Shown: positions 4,557 to 63,222 of the stretch, piece by piece
Layout: every line of letters starts with the position of its first letter
Numbering within the stretch: position 1 is the first letter of the stretch
NCBI RefSeq assembly: GCF_040958095.1
Contig: NC_091160.1
Span: 40,992,972 to 41,056,971 of the forward strand
Source of the DNA: Procambarus clarkii
Lineage: Eukaryota; Arthropoda; Malacostraca; Decapoda; Cambaridae
Direction of reading: 5' to 3'
Length of the DNA stretch: 64,000 nt
The notes under the pieces: model-generated
The model's input: the letters and a program-made list of their open reading frames with translations, nothing else
Databases searched by the model: none
Told to the model about the DNA's origin: nothing
Made by a program: the position numbers and the translations under genes

Positions 4557-7500
4557 CTCCCTGCGTCCACACTCCCCTCCCTGCGTCCACACTCCCCTCC
4601 CTGCGTCCACACTCCCCCTCCCTGCCGTCCACACTCCCCCTCCCTGCCGTCCACACTCCCCCTCCCTGCCGTCCACACTCCCCTCCCTGCCGTCCACACT
4701 CCCCCCCCTGCCGTCCACACTCCCCCTCCCTGCCGTCCACACTCCCCCTCCCTGCCGTCCACACTCCCCCTCCCTGCCGTCCACACTCCCCTCCCTGCGT
4801 CCACACTCCCTCCCTGCGTCCACACTCCCCCTCCCTGCCGTCCACACTCCCCCTCCCTGCCGTCCACACTCCCCTCCCTGCGTCCACACTCCCCTCCCTG
4901 CCGTCCACACTCCCCCTCCCTGCCGTCCACACTCCCCTCCCTGCGTCCACACTCCCCCTCCCTGCCGTCCACACTCCCCCTCCCTGCCGTCCACACTCCC
5001 CTCCCTGCGTCACACTCCCCTCCCTGCCGTCCACACTCCCCTCCCTGCCGTCCACACTCCCCTCCCTGCCGTCTACACTCCCCTCCCTGCCGTCCACACT
5101 CCCCCTCCCTGCCGTCCACACTCCCCTCCCTGCCGTCCACACTCCCCTCCCTGCCGTCTACACTCCCCTCCCTGCCGTCCACACTCCCCTCCCTGCCGTC
5201 CACACTCCCCCTCCCTGCCGTCCACACTCCCCCTCCCTGCCGTCCACACTCCCCTCCCTGCCGTCCACACTCCCCCTCCCTGCCGTCCACACTCCCCCTC
5301 CCAGCGTCCACACTCCCCCTCCCAGCCGTCCACACTCCCCCTCCCTGCCGTCCACACTCCCCCTCCCTGCCGTCCACACTCCCCCTCCCTGCGTCCACAC
5401 TCCCCTCCCCAGCCGTCCACACTCCCCTCCCTGCCGTCCACACTCCCCTCCCTGCCGTCTACACTCCCCCTCCCTGCGTCCACACTCCCCCTCCCTGCCG
5501 TCCACACTCCCCTCCCTGCCGTCCACACTCCCCTCCCTGCCGTCCACACTCCCCTCCCTGCCGTCCACACTCCCCTCCCTGCCGTCCACACTCCCCCTCC
5601 CTGCCGTCCACACTCCCCTCCCTGCCGTCCCACACTCCCCCTCCCAGCGTCCACACTCCCCTCCCTGCCGTCCACACTCCCCTCCCTGCCGTCCACACTC
5701 CCCCTCCCTGCCGTCCACCTCCCCTCCCTGCGTCCACACTCCCCTCCCTGCCGTCCACACTCCCCTCCCTGCCGTCCACACTCCCCCTCCCTGCCGTCCA
5801 CACTCCCCTCCCTCGTCCACACTCCCCTCCCTGCCGTCCACACTCCCCCTCCCTGCCGTCCACACTCCCCCTCCCTGCCGTCCACACTCCCCTCCCTGCC
5901 GTCCACACTCCCCTCCCTGCCGTCCACACTCCCCTCCCTGCCGTCCACACTCCCCTCCCTGCCGTCCACACTCCCCCTCCCTGCCGTCCACACTCCCCTC
6001 CCTGCCGTCCACACTCCCCCCCCTGCCGTCCACACTCCCCCTCCCTGCCGTCACACTCCCCTCCCTGCCGTCCACACTCCCCCCCCTGCCGTCCACACTC
6101 CCCCTCCCTGCCGTCCACACTCCCCCTCCCTGCCGTCCACACTCCCCCTCCCTGCCGTCCACACTCCCCTCCCTGCCGTCCACACTCCCCCTCCCTGCCG
6201 TCCACACTCCCCCCCCTGCCGTCCACACTCCCCCTCCCTGCCGTCCACACTCCCCTCCCTGCCGTCCACACTCCCCTCCCTGCCGTCCACACTCCCCTCC
6301 CTGCCGTCCACACTCCCCCTCCCTGCCGTCCACATCCCCCTCCCTGCCGTCCACACTCCCCTCCCTGCCGTCCACACTCCCCTCCCTGCCGTCCACACTC
6401 CCCCTCCCTGCCGTCCACATCCCCCTCCCTGCCGTCCACACTCCCCTCCCTGCCGTCCACACTCCCCCTCCCTGCCGTCCACACTCCCCCTCCCTGCCCT
6501 GCCGTCCACACTCCCCCTCCCTGCCGTCCACACTCCCCCTCCCTGCCGTCCACACTCCCCCTCCCTGCCGTCCACACTCCCCCTCCCTGCCGTCCACACT
6601 CCCCTCCCTGCCGTCCACACTCCCCCTCCCTGCCGTCTACACTCCCCTCCCTGCCGTCCACACCTCCCTCCCTGCCGTCCACACTCCCCTCCCTGCCGTC
6701 ACACTCCCCCCTCCCTGCGTCCACACTCCCCTCCCTGCCGTCCACACTCCCCCTCCCTGCCGTCCACACTCCCCTCCCTGCGTCCACACTCCCCCTCCCT
6801 GCCGTCCACACTCCCCCTCCCTGCCGTCCACACTCCCCCTCCCTGCCGTCCACACTCCCCCTCCCTGCGTCCACACTCCCCCTCCCTGCCGTCCACACTC
6901 CCCTCCCTGCCGTCCACACTCCCCTCCCTGTCCACACTCCCCTCCCTGCCGTCCACACTCCCCCTCCCTGCCGTCCACACTCCCCCTCCCTGCCGTCCAC
7001 ACTCCCCCCCTGCCGTCCACACTCCCCTCCCTGCGTCCACACTCCCCTCCCTGCCGTCCACACTCCCCTCCCCCGTCCACACTCCCCCTCCCTGCCGTCC
7101 ACTCCCCTCCCTGCCGTCCACACTCCCCCTCCCTGCCGTCCACACTCCCCCTCCCTGCCGTCCACACTCCCCTCCCTGCCGTCCACACTCCCCTCCCTGC
7201 CGTCCACACTCCCCTCCCTGCCGTCCACACCTCCCCCTCCCTGCCGTCCACACTCCCCTCCCTGCCGTCCACACTCCCCTCCCTGCCGTCCACACTCCCC
7301 CCCCTGCCGTCCACACTCCCCCTCCCTGCCGTCCACACTCCCCTCCCACCGTCCACACTCCCCTCCCTGCCGTCCACACTCCCCTCCCTGCCGTCCACAC
7401 TCCCCCTCCCTGCCGTCCACACTCCCCCTCCCTGCCGTCCACACTCCCCTCCCTGCCGTCCACACTCCCCCTCCCTGCCGTCCACACTCCCCCTCCCTGC

Positions 7501-10500
7501 CGTCCACACTCCCCTCCCTGCCGTCCACACTCCCCCTCCTGCCGTCCACACTCCCCCTCCCTGCCGTCCACACTCCCCTCCCTGCCGTCCACACTCCCCC
7601 TCCCTGCCGTCCACACTCCCCCTCCTGCCGTCCACACTCCCCTCCCTGCCGTCCACACTCCCCTCCCTGCCGTCCACACTCCCCCTCCCTGCCGTCCACA
7701 CTCCCCCTCCCTGCCGTCCACACTCCCTCCCTGCCGTCCACACTCCCCCTCCCTGCCGTCCACACTCCCCTCCCTGCCGTCCACACTCCCCTCCCCCGTC
7801 CACACTCCCCTCCCTGCCGTCCACACTCCCCCTCCCTGCCGTCCACACTCCCCCTCCCTGCCGTCCACACTCCCCCTCCCTGCCGTCCACACTCCCCTCC
7901 TGCGTCCACACTCCCCTCCCCCGTCCACACTCCCCCTCCCTGCCGTCCACACTCCCCCTCCCTGCCGTCCCACTCCCCTCCCTGCCGTCCACACTCCCCC
8001 TCCCTGCCGTCCACACTCCCCTCCCTGCCGTCCACACTCCCCCTCCCTGCCGTCCACACTCCCCCCCCTGCCGTCCACACTCCCCTCCCTGCCGTCCACA
8101 CTCCCCCTCCCTGCCGTCCACACTCCCCCTCCCTGCCGTCCACACTCCCCTCCCTGCCGTCCACACTCCCCTCCCTGCCGTCCACACTCCCCTCCCTGCG
8201 TCCACACTCCCCCTCCTGCCGTCCACACTCCCCCTCCCTGCCGTCCACACTCCCCTCCCTGCCGTCCACACTCCCCCTCCCTGCGTCCACACTCCCCCTC
8301 CCTGCCGTCACTCCCCTCCCCCGTCCACACTCCCCTCCCTGCCGTCCACACTCCCTCCCTGCCGTCCACACTCCCCCTCCCTGCCGTCCACACTCCCCCT
8401 CCCTGCCGTCCACACTCCCCCTCCCTGCCGTCCACACTCCCCCTCCCTACGTCCACACTCCCCCCCCTGCCGTCCACACTCCCCCTCCCTGCCGTCCACA
8501 CTCCCCTCCCTGCCGTCCACACTCCCCTCCCTGCCGTCCACACTCCCCCTCCCTGCCGTCCACACTCCCCTCCCTGCCGTCCACACTCCCCCCCTCCGCC
8601 GTCCACACTCCCCCTCCCTGCCGTCCACACTCCCCTCCCTGCCGTCCACACTCCCCTCCCTGCCGTCCACACTCCCCCTCCCACCGTCCACACTCCCCTC
8701 CCTGCCGTCCACACTCCCCCTCCCCCGTCCACACTCCCCTCCCTGCCGTCCACACTCCCCCTCCCTGCCGTCCACACTCCCCTCCCTGCCGTCCACACTC
8801 CCCCTCCCTGCCGTCCACACTCCCCCTCCCTGCGTCCACACTCCCCCTCCCTGCCGTCCACACTCCCCCTCCCTGCCGTCCACACTCCCCCTCCCCGTCC
8901 ACACTCCCCCTCCCTGCCGTCCACACTCCCCCTCCCTGCCGTCCACACTCCCCTCCCCCGTCCACACTCCCCCTCCCTGCCGTCCACACTCCCCCTCCCT
9001 GCCGTCCACACTCCCCCCCTGCCGTCCACACTCCCCCTCCCTGCCGTCCACACTCCCCCTCCCTGCCGTCCACACTCCCCTCCCCCCCCTGCCGTCCACA
9101 CTCCCCTCCCTGCCGTCCACACTCCCCCTCCCTGCCGTCCACACTCCCCCTCCCTGCCGTCCACACTCCCCTCCCTGCCGTCCACACTCCCCCTCCCTGC
9201 CGTCCACACTCCCCCTCCCTGCCGTCCACACTCCCCCTCCCTGCCGTCCACACTCCCCCTCCCTGCCGTCCCACTCCCCCTCCCAGCGTCCACACTCCCT
9301 CCCCCTTGCCGTCCACACTCCCCTCCCTGCCGTCCACACTCCCCCCCCTGCCGTCCACACTCCCCTCCCTGCCGTCCACACTCCCCCTCCCCGCGTCCAC
9401 ACTCCCCCTCCCTGCCGTCCACACTCCCCTCCCTGCCGTCCACACTCCCCCTCCCTGCCGTCCACACTCCCCTCCCTGCCGTCCACACTCCCCCTCCCAG
9501 CGTCCACACTCCCCTCCCTGCCGTCCACACTCCCCTCCCTGCCGTCGACACTCCCTCCCTGCCGTCCACACTCCCCCTCCCTGCCGTCCACACTCCCCTC
9601 CCTGCCGTCCACACTCCCCCTCCCTGCCGTCCACACTCCCCTCCTGCCGTCCACACTCCCCTCTGCCGTCCACACTCCCCTCCCTGCCGTCCACACTCCC
9701 CTCCCTGCCGTCCACACTCCCCCTCCCTGCCGTCCACACTCCCCTCCCTGCCGTCCACACTCCCCTCCCTGCGTCCACACTCCCCTCCCTGCCGTCCACA
9801 CTCCCCTCCCTGCCGTCCACACTCCCCTCCCTGCCGTCCACACTCCCCTCCCTGCCGTCCACACTCCCCTCCCTGCCGTCCACACTCCCCTCCCTGCTGC
9901 GTCCACACTCCCCCTCCCTGCCGTCCACACTCCCCCTCCCTGCCGTCCACACTCCCCCTCCCTGCCGTCCACACTCCCCCTCCCTGCCGTCCACACTCCC
10001 CTCCCTGCCGTCCACACTCCCCCTCCCTGCCGTCCACACTCCCCCTCCCTGCCGTCCACACTCCCCTCCCTGCCGTCCACACTCCCCTCCCTGCCGTCCA
10101 CACTCCCCCTCCCTGCCGTCCACACTCCCCCTCCCTGCCGTCCACACTCCCCTCCCTGCCGTCCACACTCCCCCTCCCTGCCGTCCACACTCCCTCCCTG
10201 CCGTCCACACTCCCCTCCCTGCCGTCCACACTCCCCCTCCCTGCCGTCCACACTCCCCCTCCCTGCCGTCCACACTCCCCCTCCCTGCCGTCCACACTCC
10301 CCCTCCCTGCCGTCCACACTCCCCCTCCCTGCCGTCCACACTCCCCTCCCTGCCGTCCACACTCCCCCTCCCTGCCGTCCACACTCCCCCTCCCTGCCGT
10401 CCACACTCCCCTCCCTGCCGTCCACACTCCCCCTCCCTGCCGTCCACACTCCTCCCTGCCGTCCACACTCCCCTCCCTGCTCCACACTCCCCCTCCCTGC

Positions 10501-13500
10501 CGTCCACACTCCCCCTCCCTGCCGTCCACACTCCCCCTCCCTGCCGTCCACACTCCCCCTCCCTGCCGTCCACACTCCCCCTCCCTGCCGTCCACACTCC
10601 CCCTCCCTGCCGTCCACACTCCCCTCCCTGCCGTCCACACTCCCCTCCCTGCCGTCCACACTCCCCCTCCCAGCGTCCACACTCCCCCTCCTGCCGTCCA
10701 CACTCCCCCCCTGCCGTCCACACTCCCCTCCCTGCCGTCCACACTCCCCTCCCAGCCGTCCACACTCCCCCTCCCTGCCGTCCACACTCCCCTCCATGCC
10801 GTCCACACTCCCCCTCCCTGCCGTCCACACTCCCCCTCCCTGCCGTCCACACTCCCCTCCCTGCCGTCCACACTCCCCCTCCCTGCCGTCCACACTCCCC
10901 CTCCCTGCCGTCCACACTCCCCTCCCTGCCGTCCACACTCCCCCTCCCTGCCGTCCACACTCCCCTCCCTGCCGTCCACACTCCCCTCCCTGCCGTCCAC
11001 ACTCCCCCTCCCTGCCGTCCACACTCCCCTCTCTGCCGTCCACACTCCCCTCCCTGCCGTCCACACTCCCCCTCCTGCCGTCCACACTCCCCCTCCCTGC
11101 CGTCCACACTCCCCCTCCCTGCCGTCCACACTCCCCTCCCTGCGTCCACACTCCCCTCCCTGCCGTCCACACTCCCCTCCCTGCCGTCCACACTCCCCCT
11201 CCCTGCCGTCCACACTCCCCTCCCTGCCGTCCACACTCCCCCTCCCTGCCGTCCACACTCCCCTCCCTGCCGTCCACACTCCCCCCCCTGCCGTCCACAC
11301 TCCCCTCCCTGCCGTCCACACTCCCCTCCTGCCGTCCACACTCCCCCTCCCTGCCGTCCACACTCCCCCTCCCTGCCGTCCACACTCCCCCTCCCTGCCG
11401 TCCACACTCCCCTCCCTGCCGTCCACACTCCCCTCCCTGCGTCCACACTCCCCCTCCCTGCCGTCCACACTCCCCCTCCCTGGCGTCCACACTCCCCCTC
11501 CCTGCCGTCCACACTCCCCTCCCTGCCGTCCACACTCCCCCTCCCTGCCGTCCACACTCCCCTCCCTGCCGTCCACACTCCCCTCCCTGCCGTCCACACT
11601 CCCCCTCCCTGCCGTCCACACTCCCCTCCCTGCCGTCCACACTCCCCCTCCCTGCCGTCCACACTCCCCCTCCCTGCCGTCCACACTCCCCCTCCCTGCC
11701 GTCCACACTCCCCTCCCTGCCGTCCACACTCCCCTCCCTGCCGTCTACACTCCCCTCCCTGCCGTCCACACTCCCCCTCCCTGCCGTCCACACTCCCCCT
11801 CCCAGCGTCCACACTCCCCTCCCTGCCGTCCACACTCCCCCTCCTGCCGTCCACACTCCCCTCCCTGCCGTCCACACTCCCCCTCCCTGCCGTCCACACT
11901 CCCCTCCCTGCCGTCCACACTCCCCCTCCCTGCCGTCCACACTCCCCCTCCCTGCCGTCCACTCCCCCTCCCAGCCGTCCACACTCCCCTCCCTGCCGTC
12001 CACACTCCCCCTCCCTGCCGTCCACACTCCCCTCCCTGCCGTCCACACTCCCCTCCCTGCCGTCCACACTCCCCCTCCCTGCCGTCCACACTCCCCTCCC
12101 TGCCGTCCACACTCCCCTCCCTGCCGTCCACACTCCCCTCCCTGCCGTCCACACTCCCCCTCCCAGCGTCCACACTCCCCCTCCCTGCCGTCCACACTCC
12201 CCTCCCTGCCGTCCACACTCCCCCTCCCTGCCGTCCACACTCCCCTCCCTGCCGTCCACACTCCCCCTCCCTGCCGTCCACACTCCCCTCCCTGCCGTCC
12301 ACACTCCCCCTCCCTGCCGTCCACACTCCCCTCCCTGCCGTCCACACTCCCCCTCCCTGCCGTCCACACTCCCCTCCCTGCCGTCCACACTCCCCCTCCC
12401 TGCCGTCCACACTCCCCCTCCCAGCGTCCACACTCCCCTCCCTGCCGTCCACACTCCCCTCCCTGCCGTCCACACTCCCCTCCCTGCCGTCCACACTCCC
12501 CCTCCCTGCCGTCCACACTCCCCCTCCCTGCCGTCCACACTCCCCCTCCCTGCCGTCCACACTCCCCTCTCTGCCGTCCACACTCCCCTCCCTGCCGTCC
12601 ACACTCCCCCTCCCTGCCGTCCACACTCCCCCTCCCTGCCGTCCACACTCCCCTCCCTGCCGTCCACACTCCCCTCCCTGCCGTCCACACTCCCCTCCCT
12701 GCGTCCACACTCCCCCTCCCTGCCGTCCACACTCCCCCTCCCAGCGTCCACACTCCCCTCCTGCCGTCCACACTCCCCCTCCCTGCCGTCCACACTCCCC
12801 TCCCTGCCGTCCACACTCCCCCTCCCTGCCGTCCACACTCCCTCCCTGCCGTCCACACTCCCCTCCTGCCGTCCACACTCCCCCTCCCTGCCGTCCACAC
12901 TCCCCCTCCTGCCGTCCACACTCCCCTCCCTGCCGTCCACACTCCCCTCCCTGCCGTCCACACTCCCCTCCCTGCCGTCCACACTCCCCCTCCCTGCCGT
13001 CCACACTCCCCTCCCTGCCGTCCACACTCCCCTCCCTGCCGTCCACACTCCCCCTCCCTGCCGTCCACACTCCCCCTCCCTGCCGTCCACACTCCCCCTC
13101 CCAGCGTCCACACTCCCCCTCCCTGCCGTCCACACTCCCCCTCCCTGCCGTCCACACTCCCCCTCCCTGCCGTCCACACTCCCCCTCCCTGCCGTCCACA
13201 CTCCCCCTCCCGCGTCCACACTCCCCTCCCTGCCGTCACACTCCCCCTCCTGCCGTCCACACTCCCCTCCCAGCGTCCACACTCCCCCTCCCTGCCGTCC
13301 ACACTCCCCTCCCTGCCGTCCACACTCCCCTCCCTGCCGTCCACACTCCCCCTCCCTGCCGTCCACACTCCCCCTCCCTGCCGTCCACACTCCCCCCCCT
13401 GCCGTCCACACTCCCCTCCCTGCCGTCCACACTCCCCTCCCTGCCGTCCACACTCCCCCTCCCTGCCGTCCACACTCCCCTCCCTGCCGTCCACACTCCC

Positions 13501-14830
13501 CTCCCTGCCGTCCACACTCCCCCTCCCTGCCGTCCACACTCCCCTCCCTGCCGTCCACACTCCCCTCCCTGCCGTCCACACTCCCCCTCCCTGCCGTCCA
13601 CACTCCCCCTCCCTGCCGTCCACACTCCCCCCTCCCTGCCGTCCACACTCCCCCTCCCTGCGTCCACACTCCCCTCCGCGTCCACACTCCCCCCTCCCGC
13701 CGTCCACACTCCCCCTCCCTGCCGTCCACACTCCCTCCTCCCAGCGTCCACACTCCCCCTCCCTGCCGTCCACACTCCCCTCCCTGCCGTCCACACTCCC
13801 CCTCCCAGCGTCCACACTCCCCCTCCCTGCCGTCCACACTCCCCTCCCTGCCGTCCACACTCCCCCTCCTGCCGTCCACACTCCCCCTCCCTGCCGTCCA
13901 CACTCCCCTCCCTGCCGTCCACACTCCCCTCCCTGCCGTCCACACTCCCCCTCCCTGCCGTCCACACTCCCTCCCTGCCGTCCACACTCCTCCCTGCCGT
14001 CCACACTCCCCCTCCCTGCCGTCCACACTCCCCTCCCTGCCGTCCACACTCCCCCTCCCTGCCGTCCACACTCCCCCTCCCTGCCGTCCACACTCCCCTC
14101 CATGCCGTCCACACTCCCCCTCCCTGCCGTCCACACTCCCCCTCCCTGCCGTCCACACTCCCCTCCCTGCCGTCCACACTCCCCCTCCCTGCGTCCACAC
14201 TCCCCCTCCCTGCCGTCCACACTCCCCTCCCTGCCGTCCACACTCCCCCTCCCTGCCGTCCACACTCCCCTCCCTGCCGTCACACTCCCCTCCCTGCCGT
14301 CCACACTCCCCTCCCTGCCGTCCACACTCCCTCTCTGCCGTCCACACTCCCCTCCCTGCCGTCCACACTCCCCTCCCTGCCGTCCACAATCCCCCTCCCT
14401 GCCGTCCACACTCCCCTCCCTGCCGTCCACACTCCCCTCCCAGCGTCCACACTCCCCCTCCCTGCCGTCCCTCCCCTCCCTGCCGTCCACACTCCCCCTC
14501 CCTGCCGTCCACACTCCCCTCCCTCCGTCCACACTCCCCCTCCCTGCCGTCCACACTCCCTCCCTGCCGTCCACACTCCCCTCCCTGCCGTCCACACTCC
14601 CCTCCCTGCTGTCCACACTCCCCCTCCCTGCCGTCCACACTCCCCTCCCTGCCGTCCACACTCCCCCTCCCTGCCGTCCACACTCCCCTCCCTGCCGTCC
14701 ACACTCCCCTCCCTGCCGTCTACACTCCCCCTCCCTGCGTCCACACTCCCCCTCCCTGCCGTCCACACTCCCCCTCCCAGCGTCCACACTCCCCCTCCCT
14801 GCCGTCCACACTCCCCCCCTGCCGTCCACA
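4557..14830. repeat. 10.3 kb C-rich 21-22 bp minisatellite
   Basis: Several hundred tandem copies of cctccctgccgtccacactcc, mostly 21 or 22 bp (three or four extra C), with 20 bp variants that lack one C in gccgtc. The array runs into the assembly gap at 14831. The unit contains no stop trinucleotide on either strand, so all frames stay open for kilobases whatever the indels. The plus frame from an ATG at 4486 is open past 16 kb. Because 21 and 22 bp units are mixed at random, reading frame is not conserved along the array, which argues against selection for protein. The minus strand is G-rich with paired runs GGGAGGGG every unit. Confidence 0.97.
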
Positions 14831-19253: not shown

Positions 19254-19569
19254 GATTAATTGATGAAGATTAAGCCACCCAAAAGGGTGGCACGGGCATG
19301 AATAAGCCCGTAAGTGGTGGCCCCTTTTGATCCATTACCAGTATCAAGAGCTGATACTGGAGATCTGTGGAGGTGCGACTGCACCCTGCGTGACGGGAGA
19401 TGTCTCCCGAGTGAATGTGTTAGATGAAGATTAAGCCACCCAAAAGGTGGCACGGGCATGAATAGCCCGTAAGTGGTGGCCCTTTTGAGCCATCACCAGT
19501 ATCAATAGATGATTACTGGAGATCTGTGGAGGTGCGACTGCACCCTGCGTGACGGGAGATGTCTCCGTG
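19254..19569 (+). mobile_element. Family B: dimeric multi-hairpin mobile element
   Basis: Two tandem copies of a unit of about 163 bp (starts near 19261 and 19423), flanked by the perfect 11-bp direct repeat TGTCCGCTATT at 19243-19253 and 19570-19580, as expected for a target site duplication. Each unit is a string of five hairpins. Their stems are GCCACC/GGTGGC, ACGGGC/GCCCGT, CCAGTATCA/TGATACTGG, GGTGC/GCACC and CGGGAGA/TCTCCCG (the last is imperfect in copy 2). There is no open reading frame or poly-A tail. A partial reversed copy lies at about 47690-47755. Confidence 0.7.
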
Positions 19570-32500: not shown

Positions 32501-35500
32501 CCCAGATTTGGTTCCGGGCTCCCTTGGGTTCCTCGACCCCGTCCTTCCAGAGGTTTTCTGCCTCGTATCTCCCCTCGAAGAGGTTCGGGAGGCTCTTGCT
32601 GCATACCTCTGTGAGACCCAGGTTCCACCTCCGTGATGGATCTGTCTTTATTTGTGTTTGGTTCGTCTTCCCCATATTGGGTGCGTTTAGAGGTTCCAGA
32701 GTCTTCCTGGCTGGCAGTCTGTCCATTTTTTTGTTGGGGGCGTGGCATAGGTTTTGTTGGTCCCGCACGCTTGAGTGGCGAGAAACTTCTACAGTTCTGC
32801 AGGTTTACCTGGGGGCAAGTTGGAGCATCTTAATGCTTGCTTGTTCACCCCTGTGCTTTCTCGGGACATTGGCCTTGTGCAGCTGCACGTGCAGGTTCCT
32901 ACCCTTTCGGCATCCTTGGTAGCTGAGGATTTGCGCACCCATGGGCATTTGGCTTTGGTCATGCACTTCTTTTCCCTTATTGAGCTGTCTTCTCCCTGGC
33001 TTGAGGAAGATGTGGAGGCATTGAGAGCCTGGCCTTCATCTGGGGTGCTGTCCTCAGTGGCTCGAGCATCGGCCGCACTGTTGAAGCTGTTTGTGCCTAT
33101 CCTGAAGGAGGCAGTGTCTCTGTTCTTTGCTTCTCGCCTCATGTGCTGACAGGCTGTGCTCGCTCTCTCTTTTTGGAATCCACTTGGGCCCTGGCTCTTA
33201 GGTTTTCATTACAGTTTTGTCTGTTGCTGTTTGCGGAGTCTGCTGTCACACAGTTTCTGCTGGCGGCTTCGTCCAGTTGTCGTCTTATGTCGGACTTGTT
33301 GGTTCTCTGGGGCGACCGGTCTCGGTCTTCTCAGAAGGGTCGTGCCAGGGTTCGTGAGTTCTGCTGGTCAAGGTAGGCTTTGGTGCCAGCTTCTGAGCCA
33401 ACGATGCCTTCGAAGCCAGCGTCGTCTGGCCGGTACAATTATCGCTCTGTTCATTGGCCAGCTTCTCGTAAGGAGTGTTGACCCTTTCGCAATTTGCCCT
33501 GTTAACAGGGCGATGGGGGCGAGGCTCACTCTGTTTGCTCGCACTTGATCCCACGATTTGTGGGTGTTTTCAGTTGTGACATCCGGCCTGTGGTGGCGTT
33601 GGGTGGCGGCTCTTCCTTCGGGGGGTTCGGGGCTGACGGGGCAGGCGTCTTCCCGTGTGCTTCATCAGGTTATCTTGGAGTGGGTGCGCTTGAGCGTGGT
33701 CGAAATGACCCCATCCCCTCAGGTGGGTTTCTCGCCTGTTCCCAGTGCCGAAACGAGACTGTGTGGATCTGCGGTTCATTTTGGACTTGTCCCGTCTGAA
33801 CCCCTGGATTCCTTGCCTCTCCTTTGGATGACCACTCTGTCTCGGGTCCAGCTTCTTTTGGAGCCGGGTGCTTGGATGATGTCTCTGGATCTCAAGGATG
33901 CTTATTGGCACATCCCTATTCATTCGGGGTTCAGGGACTGGCTAGGTTTCGTGGTGGGGTATCAGGCTTACTGTTTTCGTTGCTTCCTTTTAGCTTGCAT
34001 CTGGCACCTTGCGTATTCACATTTCTTAGCCGGGTCGTGGTGACCCGTTTGCGTCTGCTAGGAATTTGGGTCCTGGCCGACCTCAATGACTGGCTGACGT
34101 GGGCTTCCAGCTGGTCCACTTGTCTGCTCACCAGGAGTGTGGTTCTTTCCAAGCTTGTCGGGTTCGGGTTATTGGTGAACTGTGGAAAATCCCATCTGGT
34201 TCCGTTCCAGGTTCAGTCCTGGCTGGGTCTTGTTTGGGACACTTCCATGTCTCTCCCTCTAGAGGCATTGCTGAGGCTGTAGTCTTGCCTTCATCTGTTT
34301 CTGAGGGGGGTGGCTGCTCAAGCAGTTGTGTGGGAGTTTAAACTTTGCCGTGCTGGTCTACCCACTGGGTCGGATTTGGCTTCGCCGTGTGTTCAGGTTC
34401 CTTCGGGGACCTTCCGCTTCTCTCGTGATTGCTAGGTTCGTCCTTCAGGGGCCTTGTGTTGGTTGCTGCGTTGCGAGCTTCCTCTTCAGGGTTTTTGGGG
34501 TTCAGTGCCTTGGCGCCTATCCGAGCCCCTCACTCGATGTGTTCAGGGACATGTCGTCCCTCGGCTGGGCTTTGTGACCAGTGCTCACCAGGCTGGCCAG
34601 GGGCGATGGGGTCTGCTTTTCCGTCGGGCTCACAGCACAGTGCTGGAGTTCGTGGTGGTTTGGCTGTTCGGAAGGTTTAGGTCACTTGGGATTCGACCAT
34701 CCAGTTCCATTCGGACTGTTCTCTGGTGGTTCATTGCCTGAACTGCGGTTCTCTTTGGGGCTGGTCGGCTTGTCTGCTGCCTTCTCGGGATTTGGCTCTG
34801 TGGGGTTCATATCTGAAGAGTGTCCAGCATCCTGGCAGATGGCCTGTCTCTGTTCATTTCCCTGTCCACAGAATGGATGGTCGACGATTGTTTGAGGGCT
34901 TAGCCTCCAAACTTGAGTCTTGGATAGCCGGCAAGGGGAGGGAAGGCCTGCTCGGACAAGCAGCACGGCAGTGGAGTGTGACGTTTGCTTGTTTCCTTGG
35001 GATTGGAGGGAGTTCTACCTCTCTTTGGTTTTTTGTTGTACTTTTCTTACCATGTGGGGTTTGTTTTGTTATGCCTACCTTTCTGGGTGCCTAACCCCGG
35101 TCGATGGCAGATAAGGAAAACCCCCAACCACTGGGAGGTTTTCCAGGGCTATTGCTCCCTGCAACCTCTGAGGGGGCCAGGTTCTGGTTCATGGTCCCCG
35201 GTAGGTCGAACTTGATTGACAAATGCCCCTGTCTAATATATCGCACATTACCCCGATAGCTCCAGGGAGCCTCCGGGGCTCGCCCAGTAAATGGCATTTC
35301 ATTACATTCAACGTTGGTTTCTTTAACGCTGAAAATATTACGTATTGATAAAAACTGGCATTAATGTTATATAGGACTTGAAGAATTTACATAAACTTAT
35401 AAATTAATATTTTTTCATCATTTCAGATTCTGCTATTAGTGTATCTGGTGCCTGTGTTTGCTCGCCTGGCTGGCTTCCCAGTACTGGAGCTTCACCTCAC

Positions 35501-37097
35501 TCATAATTTTGCTTCCTGTTTTGTTATATTCTTGACTGTTCAGTACATATTTCTGTGTGTTCCTCATGTGTTTAAATTTTTGAAGCACATTTACAGCACT
35601 CTTGTAGAAATGGTTGAACTATATGGACCTCTAGGAGTTATAATTACTCTGTGGAGTCGTCTGTTTGTTCCCATACAGTTGCTTATTTTCTGGTTAATTC
35701 TTTTCATTACTCAGCTATATAACCATTATTTACCTTCTCATAATACAGCTGTAGCACCTAAGCCAGGTACAGCTTTAACATCACCTGGTGGTGCTCTGGT
35801 TGGTGTGACTGCAGCAGTAACGGGTGGGGCAACAGCTGGGTCGGCGAGTACGGCATCTATAGCGAGTTCGGCTCCGAGTGAGATGTGGTATTTGGTAATA
35901 GTGCAGAGTGCTGCCGAGGTTTGCTACACGCCTCTCATGTTGGCCGGCACCTGCGTCGCCGTCTCGTACGCTTCTCGGATTATTTTATCCATTACTAGAA
36001 CTTACACGGCTGGTCCTGGAGCAGCACCGCTGCCAGATGATCTTGTTCACTCGGGCTGGACGGAGGGTGTCACAATGGCTCTTCTGGCAGTGCAGACTTC
36101 ACTCTTAAATATGGCAATGCCTGAACGCTTGGCAGTTTTGTCCATAATCTTGCTTATCGTTGTCTCGTCACTGGTTCAAAGTATGTATGAAATTGTTGAG
36201 CCAGTAGTTTTAGCCCTCAGTGCTCAGGGTGTAGCATCTATATCCAGGCATGCTCGTGCTGTGAGTGCGTGCTTACTGTTGCTGTTGCTTCCACTATACA
36301 TGGTTTATATGTTCACACTGATATTTGAGCAAGACTTTTGGCTACTGCTTGTTGTATCCACAAGCATCATGACTTCTGTGCAAGTGTTGGGTTTATTGGC
36401 AACATATGTGCTTCTCACATGGGATGCAGTTTGTGCACAGCCATGGCCAGGATTAGATGATTTGGTTTATTATACTCGAGCTACTACAAGGGTGTTTGAG
36501 TTCATTGTTGCTGTGTTTGTTGTGGGTGCTGGGGTGAAGGAGTCTATAACAGGTCAGTGGTCATGGATCAATGCTGTTGTGTTGCTGATTCACTGTTACT
36601 TTAATGTCTGGCAACGTTTACAGCAAGGCTGGAAGAGTTTCTTGCTAAGATTAGAGGCAGCTAAAAAGATATCTGCCTTACCAGAAGCTTCTCAAGAACA
36701 GCTGCAAGCCCACAATGATGTCTGTGCCATTTGTTACGCAGAAATGACTTCAGCTCGAACTACACACTGCAATCACTTATTCCATGGCCCATGCTTACGC
36801 AAATGGCTGTATGTTCAAGATAAATGTCCCATGTGTCATGCTCCCATCACACTTAAGGATACAGATTATCCTGAAAATGCTGAGCAAGATGCCACTGATG
36901 CCCATCCACCACCACCTGAGTCTATTGAGACAGAACTGGGGGCAAATATTCCCTTGCCCGATGGCGAGAATGAAGATTTAAGTCTTTTGAACACTGACGA
37001 GGAAGATGGTGAAGAGTTACAAGATGGGTATGCATTGCACGAACCAATGATAGGGATTGAGGCGGGGGAAGCACATGTTAGTCATATTCTAGAGTAA
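23505..37097 (+). CDS. RNF145: RNF145-like RING E3 ubiquitin ligase (TRC8 family), 5 exons placed
   Basis: Exons: 23505-23535, 26228-26398, 27343-27517, 30499-30657, 35427-37097 (about 735 codons). The product is a polytopic ER-membrane RING-H2 E3 ligase. Many hydrophobic segments precede a cytosolic RING near the C-terminus (C-x2-C-x11-C-x-H-x2-H-x2-C-x10-C-x2-C) and an acidic tail. Segments such as EGVTMALLAVQT, IVVSSLVQSMYEI, DFWLL and GWKSFLLR match vertebrate RNF145 more closely than RNF139/TRC8. In vertebrates these proteins ubiquitinate sterol-pathway and other ER clients; function here is inferred. All junctions are GT-AG. The junctions 1/2, 2/3 and 4/5 keep phase, but 3/4 does not (phase 2 into phase 0), so a small exon is missing or there is an indel. 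The protein is longer than human RNF145 (663 residues from memory), partly through an Ala/Gly/Ser/Thr-rich luminal or cytosolic loop. Confidence 0.9.
23893..24137 (-). repeat. tRNA-derived SINE (Thr-TGT-like head) in intron 1
   Basis: Reverse complement of the same family as 55349-55582. The head is near 24064-24135 with B-box tgggttcgatccca(g) and loop cttgtga. The body is tacctgggtgttagtcagct, and the GC-rich end is near 23925. It ends by cttgaggttatcttgagatg. Confidence 0.85.
24836..25097 (+). repeat. tRNA-derived SINE with LINE-like tail and poly-A, intron 1
   Basis: The head starts ctccgtggtgcagcggtaag with a T-arm near tcatgggttcatatcctgg. It continues through ggggaggatttactgggcgc to the tail phrase cccgaaacgctacgtgtact agtggct. 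It ends in a run of about 11 As. The shared tail (also 20789-20905, 27153-27280, 48174-48242) suggests mobilisation by a LINE with the same 3' end. A reversed, related head lies at 37395-37552. Confidence 0.8.
25510..25725 (+). repeat. tRNA-derived SINE, intron 1
   Basis: Contains ggtagagcgatggtctcgtt, catgcaggtcggcgttcagt and ccccgaccgtccacaggtgg. The first and last parts act as A- and B-box-like blocks of a tRNA-derived head. The body runs through tcccatccctaaaccttgtc to gtaatggcttagcactttct. Other copies are at 47885-48045 (plus) and 51185-51370 and 55583-55695 (minus). Confidence 0.8.
26228..26398 (+). CDS. RNF145: RNF145-like exon 2
   Basis: Acceptor ttttttcag/GG at 26227/26228 and donor TTTG/GTGAGT at 26398/26399; 171 bp. 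It encodes the cytosolic N-terminus and the first amphipathic or membrane stretch: LKGEQFEAIATVILRVPG, then LILDYWYQNDV. The motif (V/I)xLRVPxxxxxD is shared with vertebrate RNF145 and RNF139 N-termini. It ends in phase 1. Confidence 0.88.
26399..27152. other. Intron 2 body, no other gene seen
   Basis: AT-rich intronic sequence with a CAC/CCA-rich patch around 26600-26740. No conserved element recognised. Confidence 0.5.
27153..27280 (+). repeat. Dispersed 3'-tail element, intron 2
   Basis: Plus-strand copy of the tail element described at 20789-20905. It ends with tgtatgtaccttacctgaat and a T run. No tRNA-like head precedes it, so it may be a 5'-truncated LINE or SINE. Confidence 0.75.
27343..27517 (+). 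CDS. RNF145: RNF145-like exon 3, sterol-sensing-type segment
   Basis: Acceptor ttgacag/CT and donor TCCAG/GTATTG; 175 bp. The frame (AVIQGVLVLLLPLEQLVSLY...) continues exon 2 in phase. It encodes two hydrophobic segments around LPLEQLVSLYMHYLT, aligned with vertebrate LPRQHLVQLYLYFLT. The YLYF motif, reported in vertebrate RNF145 as needed for INSIG-dependent sterol response, is YMHY here (27399-27410, residues 87-90). The exon ends in phase 2, which does not fit the phase-0 start of the next recognised exon. Confidence 0.85.
27562..27668. repeat. Three tandem copies of a 34 bp unit in intron 3
   Basis: The phrase tttttaagagaatgattgta taatc(t/a)gagg recurs three times directly. It is a local duplication close behind exon 3. 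Confidence 0.85.
28014..28476. mobile_element. hAT-type MITE with 8-bp TSD, intron 3
   Basis: Bounded by perfect 8-bp repeats AACTAGAG at 28006-28013 and 28477-28484, the length expected for hAT insertions. Terminal inverted repeats are CAGTGATTTTCAACC at the left and, reversed, TAGCAATTATCAACC at the right (11 of 15 match), of the hAT/Charlie style. It has no transposase reading frame, so it is non-autonomous. A family C palindrome is nested inside at 28194-28355. Confidence 0.75.
28194..28355 (+). mobile_element. Family C palindromic element nested in the hAT MITE
   Basis: Left arm 28194-28242 (cacacactagaaagtgaaga, gacgacgacgtttcg) is inverted relative to right arm 28273-28322 (gaaacgtcgtcgtc, gttcattttctagtgtgtgg). 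The loop contains ttgataatggtctaggacgg. The left arm has lost the inner 20 bp that would pair with the loop. The tail tcagccacgttattgtgact matches the full copy at 46420-46601. Confidence 0.75.
28485..30498. other. Intron 3, right part
   Basis: No exon recognised. An A-run at about 29180 and AG-rich unique sequence (28860-29990) look like old, unidentified repeat. If an extra RNF145-like exon exists, it should lie in 27518-30498 with a length of 3n+1. Confidence 0.45.
30499..30657 (+). CDS. RNF145: RNF145-like exon 4
   Basis: Acceptor ttttttcag/GGC and donor ATAAG/GTAATG; 159 bp, phase 0 at both ends. It encodes GFSNMLMLQKSLFDPHNDME and a membrane segment, AAIVFHTLVATFVTFFLDL. It aligns by position with the vertebrate segment that follows YEGPMYLEPLS. 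It is read in phase 0; the +1 frame that exon 3 would require meets a stop within six codons. Confidence 0.85.
30737..31107. repeat. Left inverted terminal repeat of the DIRS-like element
   Basis: About 370 bp. Read in reverse complement it parallels 34909-35281, including gtagccggtgcggggaggga against atagccggcaaggggaggga, and ccggtgcggg to the outer ggctccctggagctatcggg. Inverted, not direct, terminal repeats are characteristic of DIRS-type elements. Confidence 0.85.
34909..35281. repeat. Right inverted terminal repeat of the DIRS-like element
   Basis: Partner of 30737-31107, diverged by scattered substitutions and small indels. The outer end is ccccgatagctccagggagc followed by ctccggggctc. 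Confidence 0.85.
35427..37097 (+). CDS. RNF145: RNF145-like exon 5 (last coding exon, RING domain)
   Basis: Acceptor catttcag/ATT at 35426/35427, stop TAA at 37095-37097; 1671 bp. It encodes LVYLVPVFARLAGFPVLEL and at least seven further hydrophobic segments, then the RING-H2 domain (36723-36836, CAICYAEM...CNHLFH...CPMC) and an acidic tail with EDLSLLNTDEEDGEEL. An Ala/Gly/Ser/Thr-rich stretch (about 35740-35880) interrupts the region between two membrane segments and is not in the vertebrate protein as I recall it. Intron 4, just upstream, holds a whole DIRS-like element. Confidence 0.95.
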   Translation: MLLLVYLVPVFARLAGFPVLELHLTHNFASCFVIFLTVQYIFLCVPHVFKFLKHIYSTLVEMVELYGPLGVIITLWSRLFVPIQLLIFWLILFITQLYNHYLPSHNTAVAPKPGTALTSPGGALVGVTAAVTGGATAGSASTASIASSAPSEMWYLVIVQSAAEVCYTPLMLAGTCVAVSYASRIILSITRTYTAGPGAAPLPDDLVHSGWTEGVTMALLAVQTSLLNMAMPERLAVLSIILLIVVSSLVQSMYEIVEPVVLALSAQGVASISRHARAVSACLLLLLLPLYMVYMFTLIFEQDFWLLLVVSTSIMTSVQVLGLLATYVLLTWDAVCAQPWPGLDDLVYYTRATTRVFEFIVAVFVVGAGVKESITGQWSWINAVVLLIHCYFNVWQRLQQGWKSFLLRLEAAKKISALPEASQEQLQAHNDVCAICYAEMTSARTTHCNHLFHGPCLRKWLYVQDKCPMCHAPITLKDTDYPENAEQDATDAHPPPPESIETELGANIPLPDGENEDLSLLNTDEEDGEELQDGYALHEPMIGIEAGEAHVSHILE

Positions 37098-46419: not shown

Positions 46420-46601
46420 GTATGTTGACCAGACCACACACTAGAAAGTGAAGGGACGACGACGTTTCGGTCCGTCCTGGACCATTCTCACAATCGACTT
46501 GAGAATGGTCCAGGACGGACCGAAACGTCGTCGTCCCTTCAACTTCTAGTGTGTGGTCTGGTCAACATACTTCAGCCACGTTATTGTGACTCATCGCCTG
46601 C
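46420..46601 (+). mobile_element. Family C: full-length palindromic element with 13-bp TSD
   Basis: Arms of about 72 bp (46419-46490 and 46500-46571) are almost perfect reverse complements around the loop caatcgact. A single-copy tail follows, ttcagccacgttattgtgac and tcatcgcctgc. The whole is flanked by the perfect 13-bp repeat AACATTAACTAAA (46407-46419 and 46602-46614). There is no reading frame and no poly-A. The loop plus right arm can be drawn with stems CGAC/GTCG and GGTCC/GGACC followed by GAAACGTC, a hammerhead-like layout with a degenerate core. Confidence 0.82.
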
Positions 46602-46799
46602 AACATTAACTAAACACTATCACTTAAGACAGCTTGCCAAAAGAGAAATTAGTCACTACGGCACTAATTACGTTAAATATGTAGGGAGTAGATTATGGCA
46701 ATAATATACTCGCTTCAAACTCATTAGCTTCATGAGAGTAGCACAACTCTCATTAGCACTAATAACGAGGCTCTAATCTTTTCCTTAATTACAGTTAAC

Positions 46800-47615
46800 G
46801 TTGTTGTTGTTGTTGTTATAGATTCAGCTACTCGGAACAAGTTCCAAGTAGCACGGGCTATGGTGAGCCCGTAGTGGACTTACCTGGCACAGGAGCGGGG
46901 CAAGTAGTACGGGCTATGGTGAGCCCGTAGTGAACTTACCTGGCACAGGAGCGGGGCAAGTAGCACGGGCTATGGTGAGCCCGTAGTGGACTTACCTGGC
47001 ACAGGAGCGGGGCAAGTAGCACGGGCTATGGTGAGCCCGTAGTGAACTTACCTGGCACAGGAGCGGGGCAAGTAGCACGGGCTATGGTGAGCCCGTAGTG
47101 GACTTACCTGGCACAGGAGCGGGGCAAGTAGCACGGACTATGGTGAGCCCGTAGTGAACTTACCTGGCACAGGAGCGGGGCAAGTAGCACGGGCTATGGT
47201 GAACCCGTAGTGGACTTACCTGGCACAGGAGCGGGACAAGTAGCACGGGCTATGGTGAGCCCGTAGTGGACTTACCTGGCACAGGAGCGGGGCAAGTAGC
47301 ACGGGCTATGGTGAGCCCGTAACTTACCTGGCACAGGAGCGGGGCAAGTAGCACGGGCTATGGTGAGCCCGTAACTTACCTGGCACAGGAGCGGGGCAAG
47401 TAGCACGGGCTATGGTGAGCCCGTAACTTACCTGGCACAGGAGCGGGGCAAGTAGCACGGGCTATGGTGAGCCCGTAACTTACCTGGCACAGGAGCGGGG
47501 CAAGTAGCACGGGCTATGGTGAGCCCGTAGTGGACTTACCTGGCACAGGAGCGGGGCAAGTAGCACGGGCTATGGTGAGCCCGTAGTGGACTTACCTGGC
47601 ACAAGAACGGTGTCG
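46800..47615 (+). mobile_element. Family A: mobile tandem array of 14 units with 10-bp TSD
   Basis: A leader (GTT repeats, tatagattcagctactcgg, aacaagttccaagtag) is followed by 14 tandem units. Ten are 56 bp: cacgggctatggtgagcccg, tagtggacttacctggcaca, ggagcggggcaagtag. Four (units 9-12) are 52 bp, lacking 4 bp. The first units alternate gtggac and gtgaac. The whole block is flanked by the perfect 10-bp repeat TACAGTTAAC (46790-46799 and 47616-47625), so it entered as one unit. Leader and unit each form a hairpin: GCTACT/AGTAGC with inner GGAAC/GTTCC, and ACGGGCT/AGCCCGT. Confidence 0.82.
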
Positions 47616-47689
47616 TACAGTTAACATTCCTTGCAACCTTTAGAGAAGGAGGAGGTAAGGTCTGATTATATTGAGCAATGGAGAAGTGA

Positions 47690-47835
47690 GTAATTATCAT
47701 ACGGGTTATTCATGCCCGTGCCACCTCTTGGGTAGCTTAATCTTCATCAATCAATCAATCGAGTACTGTTTACGGGCTCACCATAGCCCGTGCTACTTGG
47801 AACTTGTTCCGAGTAGCTGAATCTATAACAACAAC
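47690..47835 (-). mobile_element. Adjacent reversed copies of family A (one unit) and family B (partial)
   Basis: On the minus strand the leader and one hairpin unit of family A (47835 down to about 47770) are followed by gattgattgatgaagattaa, the start of family B. The GGTGGC and ACGGGC hairpins come next (to about 47695). B is cut after its second hairpin. The two families thus occur head to tail in one place. Confidence 0.7.
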
Positions 47836-51959: not shown

Positions 51960-52075
51960 AGCGTGATATAGCAAATGAAGCAATCCACAAGTGTTATATG
52001 ACAAAGAGTGCTGGGAAGACGGGACACCACGAGCGTAGCTCTCATCCTGTAACTACACTTAGGTAATTACAAGCG
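51959..52075 (-). repeat. Dispersed repeat (gacaaagagtgctgggaaga)
   Basis: Contains gacaaagagtgctgggaaga, cgggacaccacgagcgtagc and ctgtaactacacttaggtaa. Plus-strand copies are at about 58668-58905 (split by a family A insertion) and 63160-63222. Confidence 0.8.
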
Positions 52076-57564: not shown

Positions 57565-58345
<781 letters not shown>

Positions 58346-58347
58346 TC

Positions 58348-58404
58348 AGATTCAGCTACTCAGAACGAAGTGTCCATGTAGCACGGGCTATGGTGAGCCC
58401 GTAA
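58348..58404 (+). mobile_element. Family A copy, single unit, diverged
   Basis: Leader cagattcagctactcagaac then agtgtccatgtagcacgggc and tatggtgagcccgtaatg. The leader hairpin is mutated while the ACGGGCT/AGCCCGT hairpin is intact. No clear target site duplication. Confidence 0.65.
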
Positions 58405-58727
58405 TGAGGTTGATGAGAGCGCTAGGTTTAAAGCTGTGACAAGGTGTAGTGCACAACCGTTATGCCTTGCTGCCGCATGCCCACCTCTGTATCGAGTGTT
58501 CGCCGAGTTTGGCTGGAAATGTCGTCGTTGTGGGGACATTTATTGGCGTAAATGTCATCCGGTGTAGGACGGAACACGTGGGAGAGTACCCCTCCCACAG
58601 TCCCCTCCCATCCTGTGGACGGGTGTTCTGTATACACCCACCCGTCCACCATCCGTGGACGGGTGGGTGTAATTACCTAAGTGTAGTTACAGGATGAGAG
58701 CTACGCTCGTGGTGTCCCGTCTTCCCA

Positions 58728-58871
58728 TGTTGTTGCTGTTATAGATTCAGCTACTCGGAACAAGTTCCAAGTAGCACGGGCTATGGTGAGCCCGTAACTT
58801 ACCTGGCACAGGAACGGGGCAAGCAGCACAGGCTATGGTGAGCCAGTAGTGGACTTACCTAGCACAGGAGC
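58728..58871 (+). mobile_element. Family A copy, two units, 12-bp TSD
   Basis: Begins tgttgttgctgttatagatt, has the leader hairpin and two hairpin units (the second altered to cacaggctatggtgagccag). It ends tagcacaggagc. Flanked by the perfect 12-bp repeat CCCGTCTTCCCA (58716-58727 and 58872-58883). It splits a dispersed repeat that is uninterrupted at this point in the 51959-52075 and 63160-63222 copies, which serve as empty-site references. Confidence 0.88.
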
Positions 58872-58883
58872 CCCGTCTTCCCA

Positions 58884-63040: not shown

Positions 63041-63159
63041 GTTTGGTGGAGGAGTTGCAGGTGTGTGTGTGTGGGGGTGTGGGGATGGGAGCAGGGGTGA
63101 TGTATGTGTGTGTGTGGGGGGGGGGGTATGAGGGGGAGGTCTCTATGTGATCACATAAA

Positions 63160-63222
63160 TGTAGTTACAGGATGAGAGCTACACTACTGGTGTCCCGTCT
63201 TCCCAGTACTCTTTGTCATATG
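63160..63222 (+). repeat. Dispersed repeat (gtagttacaggatgagagct)
   Basis: Copy of the element at 51959-52075: gtagttacaggatgagagct, tggtgtcccgtcttcccagt, actctttgtcatat. It is an uninterrupted counterpart of the site split by the family A insertion at 58728. Confidence 0.8.

What the first reader, a model, noticed from the sequence alone, without database searches (positions are those of the whole stretch)
46800..47615. A tandem array that moved as one unit: family A with 10-bp target site duplication
The perfect repeat TACAGTTAAC lies at both outer edges of an 816 bp block made of one leader and 14 hairpin-forming 52-56 bp units. Minisatellites normally grow in place; here the flanks say the leader-plus-array entered together, or a short element entered and then expanded between its TSDs. 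Other copies in the window have 1 or 2 units with the same leader and their own TSDs. No coding capacity, poly-A or tRNA promoter is visible. This resembles nothing I can name with confidence.
Basis: seen in the sequence. Interest (0 to 1): 0.75.

Follow-up and report, generated by a model that had tools for sequence, protein, structure and literature searches.

The report
Tandem retroposon with antisense U1 head
A tiny jumping RNA gene, copied thousands of times in this animal genome, carries an exact mirror of the tip of the splicing RNA U1 and often repeats itself in tandem; the array in this window is one such inserted copy.

Summary
In detail: an 816-bp block (46800-47615) of 14 units of 52/56 bp sits between perfect 10-bp repeats. 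Read on the minus strand it is a short retroposon. The "leader" is its 3' end (two hairpins, then an (AAC)n tail against the target-site duplication). Near-identical 3' ends number 7,240 in this 4.03-Gb genome (reversed control 0). Of 20 copies picked from exact matches, 10 have clear duplications, against 0 of 3,797 shuffled pairs. A two-unit copy in the window has empty sites elsewhere. Units carry an 18-nt exact reverse complement of this genome's own U1 snRNA (nt 3-20), with a perfect splice donor. That inverted, 3'-truncated snRNA ahead of a LINE-like 3' module matches the published twin-priming type of snRNA-LINE chimera; here the chimera itself seems to have become a prolific retroposon. 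About a quarter of near-identical copies have two or more units, joined at one shared junction. Two arrays entered as multi-unit RNA (duplication at a mid-unit truncation); units also multiply or shrink in place (one insertion in three duplicated segments has 5, 11 and 12). Partner LINE, promoter and any U1-related function remain unproven. No ribozyme was found.

The parts
46790..46799 (.). target-site duplication, copy at the element's 3' side
   Evidence: TACAGTTAAC, identical to 47616-47625
46800..46817 (-). (AAC)n 3' tail of the element
   Evidence: directly abuts the duplication; same tail at other copies
46827..46852 (-). hairpin 2 of the 3' module (GCTACTTGGAACTTGTTCCGAGTAGC in sense)
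   Evidence: fold of the minus strand, z -4.05
46853..46872 (-). hairpin 1 of the last unit (ACGGGC...GCCCGT)
   Evidence: 14 hairpin cores found in the array
46878..46895 (-). 18-nt exact reverse complement of U1 snRNA nt 3-20, with splice donor CAG|GTAAGT (plus strand equals U1)
   Evidence: U1 genes of this genome read ATACTTACCTGGCACAGGAG; the exact 18-mer occurs 13 times in the 14-unit block
46845..47610 (-). array of 14 units of 56 or 52 bp, junction CTACTTG|CCCCGCTCC
   Evidence: TRF, unit parse, junction
47590..47615 (-). 5' end of the element: diverged U1 complement plus short head CGACACCG
   Evidence: many heads of other copies end ..ACAGCACCG or ..ACAGCCCCG
47616..47625 (.). target-site duplication, copy at the element's 5' side
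47771..47835 (+). headless copy of the same 3' module, beginning at the base of hairpin 1
   Evidence: 65 of 65 identical to the array's 3' end; no duplication found
58338..58406 (-). headless copy, diverged subfamily
   Evidence: 88% over 69; no duplication found
58716..58883 (-). two-unit copy (58728-58871) with 12-bp duplication CCCGTCTTCCCA
   Evidence: empty sites of the flanking repeat at window 51993-52071, window 63146-63221, L009, L027, L044
59758..59832 (+). headless copy
   Evidence: 91% over 76; only 7-letter chance repeats around it
47691..47765 (+). family B 3' module (parallel hairpins, AATC tail), a likely sister of family A's 3' module

Best explanation
It is a non-autonomous LINE-type (target-primed) retroposon of about 95-110 nt in its one-unit form. 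Sense strand: short head (6-17 nt before GCTCC in the copies with a duplication, often ending ..ACAGCACC), 18 nt antisense to the 5' end of U1 snRNA, hairpin 1, hairpin 2, (AAC)n tail. SHOWN: 3' anchoring at the tail, target-site duplications, thousands of dispersed copies, empty sites for one copy, a shared unit junction, mid-unit truncation at a duplication in two arrays, locus-specific unit variants, different unit counts in duplicated copies of one insertion. INFERRED: a partner LINE recognises the two-hairpin 3' module; the founder arose when U1 RNA was copied by twin priming at a LINE insertion (which explains why the U1 part is inverted, 3'-truncated and ends 2 nt from U1's 5' end); one source later duplicated its U1+hairpin segment once, so RNAs of several units retropose, sometimes cut short at the 5' end; after landing the units expand and contract in the DNA. 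The window array is one such insertion, lying in a segment duplicated 1.06 Mb away.
For: Duplications: 10 of 20 picked copies score >=9 against 0 of 3,797 shuffled pairs; among array-rich loci 9 of 40 against 1.3% of 774. Empty sites. Copy numbers 7,240, 5,188 and 1,211 with 0 in reversed controls. U1 complement 18 of 18; 0 of 2,000 dinucleotide shuffles reach 18, maximum 14; duplex -36.4 against -14.3 +/- 2.6 kcal/mol. Junction CTACTTGCCCCGCTCC exact in 39 of 40 multi-unit arrays, near in the other. Multi-unit entry at L015 and L043. In-place expansion: L016/L025/L019 share flanks and one base change in 28 of 28 units (5 of 778 units elsewhere) but have 5, 12 and 11 units; 27 of 32 arrays are closer within than between, 21 of 32 hold a variant seen in >=3 units and <1% elsewhere. 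Precedent for inverted snRNA-LINE chimeras: PMC4476161 (passages).
Against: The partner LINE was not found; the one LINE followed has another 3' end. No promoter identified, no expression data. 10 of 20 picked copies lack a clear duplication (in 4 of these the 5' end lay outside the piece), and 31 of 40 array-rich copies do too. No empty site was found for 11 other duplication-bearing copies in the DNA held. The U1 segment is not clearly more conserved than the rest of the unit (mean mismatch 0.017 against 0.027; exact in 546 of 716 units, other 18-nt stretches 450-552). In predicted folds the U1 complement is about half paired (0.45-0.57), so it is not fully open. The three short copies in the window have no clear duplications.
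Confidence: 0.78

Rival explanations
1. Minisatellite grown in place between a chance 10-bp repeat; nothing was transposed.
For: Units are homogenised within loci and unit number changes in place.
Against: Same 3' end and tail at thousands of sites, duplications far above shuffled pairs, empty sites for a sister copy, shared junction at unlinked loci.
Confidence: 0.02
2. Retrozyme-like element: the 52-56-nt units are circular or multimeric self-cleaving RNAs that are copied back as arrays.
For: Tandem units with duplications; multi-unit entry.
Against: No hammerhead or other ribozyme family matched at E<=10; 15 of 20 picked copies show one full unit with a linear 3' tail.
Confidence: 0.05
3. 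The U1 complement was not captured from U1 but selected: the RNA uses it as a strong splice donor or U1-binding site, for nuclear or chromatin retention or protection from early polyadenylation.
For: Perfect CAG|GTAAGT and 18-bp duplex, in most units.
Against: The match runs past the splice-site region into U1 stem sequence (U1 structure recalled) and stops 2 nt from the U1 5' end, as a copied fragment would; no excess conservation.
Confidence: 0.2
4. A LINE 3' fragment landed by ordinary insertion at the start of a U1 gene or pseudogene and antisense read-through made the chimera.
For: Also gives the inverted orientation and boundary at the U1 start; many U1 copies exist (34 of the 42 scored over cut-off).
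Against: Needs a hit within 2 bp of the U1 start; the head beyond U1 nt 20 is not U1.
Confidence: 0.2

Closest known systems
Inverted snRNA-LINE1 chimeras made by twin priming in mammals (PMC4476161, passages read)
   Same: 3'-truncated snRNA in inverse orientation, followed by a 5'-truncated LINE end, flanked by target-site duplications
   Different: [quoted passage not shown] here the chimera is a family of thousands, and the LINE origin of its 3' part is inferred
SVA/LAVA VNTR composite retrotransposons (PMC4432496, abstract and outline read)
   Same: Non-autonomous, LINE-mobilised, internal tandem repeats that remodel at the DNA level
   Different: Hominoid and L1-driven, with an Alu-like 5' region; here the repeat unit is U1 complement plus hairpin 1 and the one-unit form is ~100 nt with an (AAC)n tail
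Retrozymes (PMC7229834, PMC4918200; search listing with abstract starts only)
   Same: Small non-autonomous elements; tandem units with duplications (recalled)
   Different: They carry hammerhead ribozymes; none found here
snRNA-derived SINEs (SINEU of crocodilians; recalled)
   Same: snRNA sequence in a SINE
   Different: There, as recalled, the snRNA is in sense and supplies the 5' part; here it is antisense and 18 nt

Membership tests
SINE | short, non-coding, dispersed, target-site duplications | tested here: met
SINE | 3' end shared with a partner LINE | tested here: inconclusive
SINE | RNA polymerase III promoter from tRNA, 7SL or 5S | tested here: inconclusive
   ARAGORN 0 genes; no tRNA, 5S or 7SL match at E<=10; A and B boxes not scanned, transcription not assayed
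Twin-primed snRNA-LINE chimera | inverted, 3'-truncated snRNA joined to a 5'-truncated LINE end, with duplication | tested here: inconclusive
   inverted U1 nt 3-20 and duplications met; the LINE origin of the 3' part not shown
SVA-type VNTR composite | internal tandem repeats of variable number in a retroposon | tested here: met
   1 to 90 units in the loci read
SVA-type VNTR composite | poly-A 3' tail (recalled) | tested here: not met
   the tail is (AAC)n
SVA-type VNTR composite | Alu-like 5' region | not tested
   no comparison with Alu was run
Retrozyme | self-cleaving ribozyme in each unit | tested here: not met
   no ribozyme family at E<=10
Helitron/Helentron non-autonomous element | no target-site duplication (recalled) | tested here: not met
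   duplications and empty sites

The most novel reading that the evidence does not exclude
The element parasitises the splicing machinery: each intact unit of its RNA can pair with the U1 5' end over 18 bp, so U1 snRNP coats the transcript, holds it on chromatin and shields it from early cleavage, which favours target-primed insertion; tandem growth multiplies U1 sites (up to 90 units read at one locus), making long arrays U1 decoys and reservoirs of strong splice donors.
Probability: 0.15. Interest if true: 0.85.

Novelty: new variant of a known kind. Interest (0 to 1): 0.62.

Why it matters
It is a case where an inverted snRNA-LINE type chimera appears not to be a dead end but the founder of a prolific retroposon, and where a retroposon and a tandem array are visibly the same thing at different stages. 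If the U1 pairing works, it would be a retroposon that recruits U1 snRNP by direct base pairing, testable with ordinary RNA-seq and pull-downs. It also scatters thousands of splice-donor-like sequences through the genome.

Tried and rejected
Ribozyme or other Rfam family: only a weak U1 match (7.3 bits, E 9.5), a chance CrcZ match and two sub-threshold miRNA matches to a foldback at 46442-46548. tRNA origin: none. Selection on the U1 segment: not supported. Partner LINE: 87 of the 175 low-repeat open frames of 95 codons or more listed from loci and window were scanned against Pfam; 5 match RVT_1. The one followed (L027) belongs to a LINE whose copies end in an (ACCTCAAGGTA)-type tail, so it is not the partner. 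L038 first looked like a third array cut mid-unit at a duplication; reading it showed a separate headless copy next to an array with a full head, so it was dropped. Empty sites for 11 other duplication-bearing copies: none found among the DNA held; in that call the window two-unit copy was paired with a wrong third occurrence, corrected. Family B head: one chance Rfam match only (14.9 bits, cut-off 44, E 2). The last unit plus 3' end in the phage collection: no match. Literature: no paper in the library held the four strings of 18-21 letters; the listings (12 to 20 titles each, of 25 to 583 papers) show no antisense-U1 retroposon family. Passages of a decapod repeat survey (PMC10454600) say nothing of snRNA (0 occurrences).

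Full report
What is there. The block at 46800-47615 is 816 bp between perfect copies of TACAGTTAAC (46790-46799, 47616-47625). TRF finds 14.0 copies of a 56-bp unit; four of the 13 spacings are 52 bp. The minus strand folds into two clean hairpins followed by an unpaired AAC run (z -4.05, 0 of 200 shuffles as good); the plus strand does not stand out (z -1.21).

The genome. The window lies on contig C11 of a 4.03-Gb genome. I take it for a decapod crustacean from recalled repeats; no call shows the species. The window's array has a copy 1.06 Mb away on the same contig inside a duplicated segment (99.9% over 8,246 bp).

Copy number. With up to 2 mismatches: the 49-nt 3' end occurs 3,656 + 3,584 times, the last unit with its U1 complement and the start of hairpin 2 (59 nt) 2,660 + 2,528 times, and the junction plus last unit (70 nt), which marks two or more units, 628 + 583 times. 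Reversed controls gave 0 each time. So about 23% of near-identical 56-type copies have at least two units (1,211 of 5,188, a lower bound since the pattern is longer at the same number of mismatches). The 52-type was not counted, nor were diverged copies.

Duplications. First set: 54 arrays or copies in the loci read. Dropped before the test: 2 in L044 (duplicate of the window) and 12 without a recognisable tail, leaving 40; 9 of 40 score >=9, against 1.3% of 774 shuffled pairs. These loci were found with a multi-unit query and are biased to arrays. Second set: 20 places that I picked by hand, spread over contigs C1-C10, from the exact matches listed, so young copies are favoured: 15 show one full unit (one of these, L061, starts inside the unit before), 1 shows two, 4 show at least five with the 5' end outside the piece. 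10 of 20 score >=9, against 0 of 3,797 shuffled pairs; >=8 is 10 of 20 against 1.8%; >=7 is 11 of 20 against 4.9%. Further imperfect ones seem visible by eye (L066, L068, L069). The two-unit copy at 58728-58871 sits in a dispersed repeat; joined flanks match uninterrupted copies at window 51993-52071 (79 of 79), L009, L027, L044 and window 63146-63221: a direct empty site. The same test for 11 other copies found none in the DNA held.

The U1 head. One-unit copies read: a head of 6-17 nt before GCTCC, often ending ..ACAGCACC or ..ACAGCCCC, then CTCCTGTGCCAGGTAAGT, hairpin 1, hairpin 2, tail. I noticed the splice donor and a 16-of-18 likeness to the complement of human U1 (recalled). The test was this genome's own U1: 42 places scored for RF00003, 34 over the cut-off; the five genes printed all begin ATACTTACCTGGCACAGGAG, so the element is 18 of 18 complementary to nt 3-20. 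None of 2,000 dinucleotide shuffles of the element reaches 18 (maximum 14), and the predicted duplex is -36.4 against -14.3 +/- 2.6 kcal/mol. The likeness was noticed before it was tested, so these figures do not allow for other RNAs I might have tried. In the window array the exact 18-mer occurs 13 times in 14 units; over internal 56-bp units 546 of 716 have it. The segment is not clearly more conserved than its surroundings and is about half paired in predicted folds, so sequence alone does not show that it works.

Origin. Mammalian U1, U2, U5 and U6 chimeras with L1 exist in which a 3'-truncated snRNA lies inverted ahead of a 5'-truncated L1 between duplications, explained by twin priming (7 of 30 copies; PMC4476161, passages). 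Family A has that layout: inverted U1 lacking its 3' part, its boundary 2 nt from the U1 5' end where reverse transcription would stop, then a LINE-like 3' module. This is inference; the founder was not found. A second family (B) shares the plan of the 3' module (hairpin ACGGGC..GCCCGT, second hairpin, (AATC)n tail) with another head. Many copies without a head start at the base of hairpin 1: by eye 9 of the 14 B matches printed, for instance the one in L015 with a 14-bp duplication GGTTCCCTGCTACG next to its first bases. There are exceptions, such as the copy in L039 with 33 nt between duplication and hairpin.

Entry and growth. Of 40 arrays with two or more units read (L044 dropped), 39 hold the exact junction CTACTTGCCCCGCTCC and one a near variant; most were found with a query that holds it. 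Arrays in L015 (17 units) and L043 (19 units) begin in mid-unit directly at a duplication (12 of 12 and 9 of 10) yet hold complete units behind it: they entered as RNA of more than one unit. After entry numbers change: L016, L025 and L019 share flanks and one base change in 28 of 28 units (5 of 778 units elsewhere) but have 5, 12 and 11 units; mean within-array unit distance is 1.55 against 2.58 between, 27 of 32 arrays are closer within, 21 of 32 hold a locus-specific repeated variant. For the window locus alone they cannot be separated.

What is not known. The partner LINE (the one followed, with an RLRAAASN-type C-terminus, ends differently), the promoter, expression, and whether U1 binding matters. 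Closest in working are SVA-type VNTR composites (PMC4432496, abstract and outline); it is not one of them. Retrozymes were considered and fail the ribozyme test. No paper in the library held the tested strings, and the listings show no antisense-U1 retroposon; repeat databases outside the library were not searched, so the repeat itself may already lie unnamed in one.

Noticed in passing
window 46442-46548: A long near-perfect foldback (GGTCCAGGACGGACCGAAACGTCGTCG...) just beside the array; Rfam gives a sub-threshold MIR842 match (63.3 bits, cut-off 85), perhaps by shape alone.
   Followed up: no
window 19262-19566: Family B is also tandem here: 1.9 copies of a 159-bp unit with a longer head (..CAGTCGCACCTCCACAGATCTCCAGTATC..); another retroposon of the same plan that duplicates.
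   Followed up: partly
window 4557-14830: A 10.3-kb array of a 21/22-bp unit lies in open frames of up to 3,943 codons on the plus strand; likely an effect of the repeat.
   Followed up: no
window 35403-37097: Open frame of 564 codons matching TRC8_N plus a RING finger (RNF139/TRC8-like ubiquitin ligase), about 10 kb from the array.
   Followed up: no
L023 (nine-unit array): The last three units in sense seem to carry an 18-nt inversion of the U1-complement part (CCTGGCACAGGAGCGGGG, decoded by hand), so tandem growth there copied a local inversion.
   Followed up: no
G000:C50:16237187-16276524: Nine U1 matches on one strand spaced about 4.9 kb apart.
   Followed up: no
window 51993-52071 and 63146-63221, L009, L027, L044: A dispersed repeat (..TGGGAAGACGGGACACCACGAGC..CTCATCCTGTAACTACACTTAGGTAATTACA) that serves as the empty site of the two-unit copy.
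   Followed up: partly
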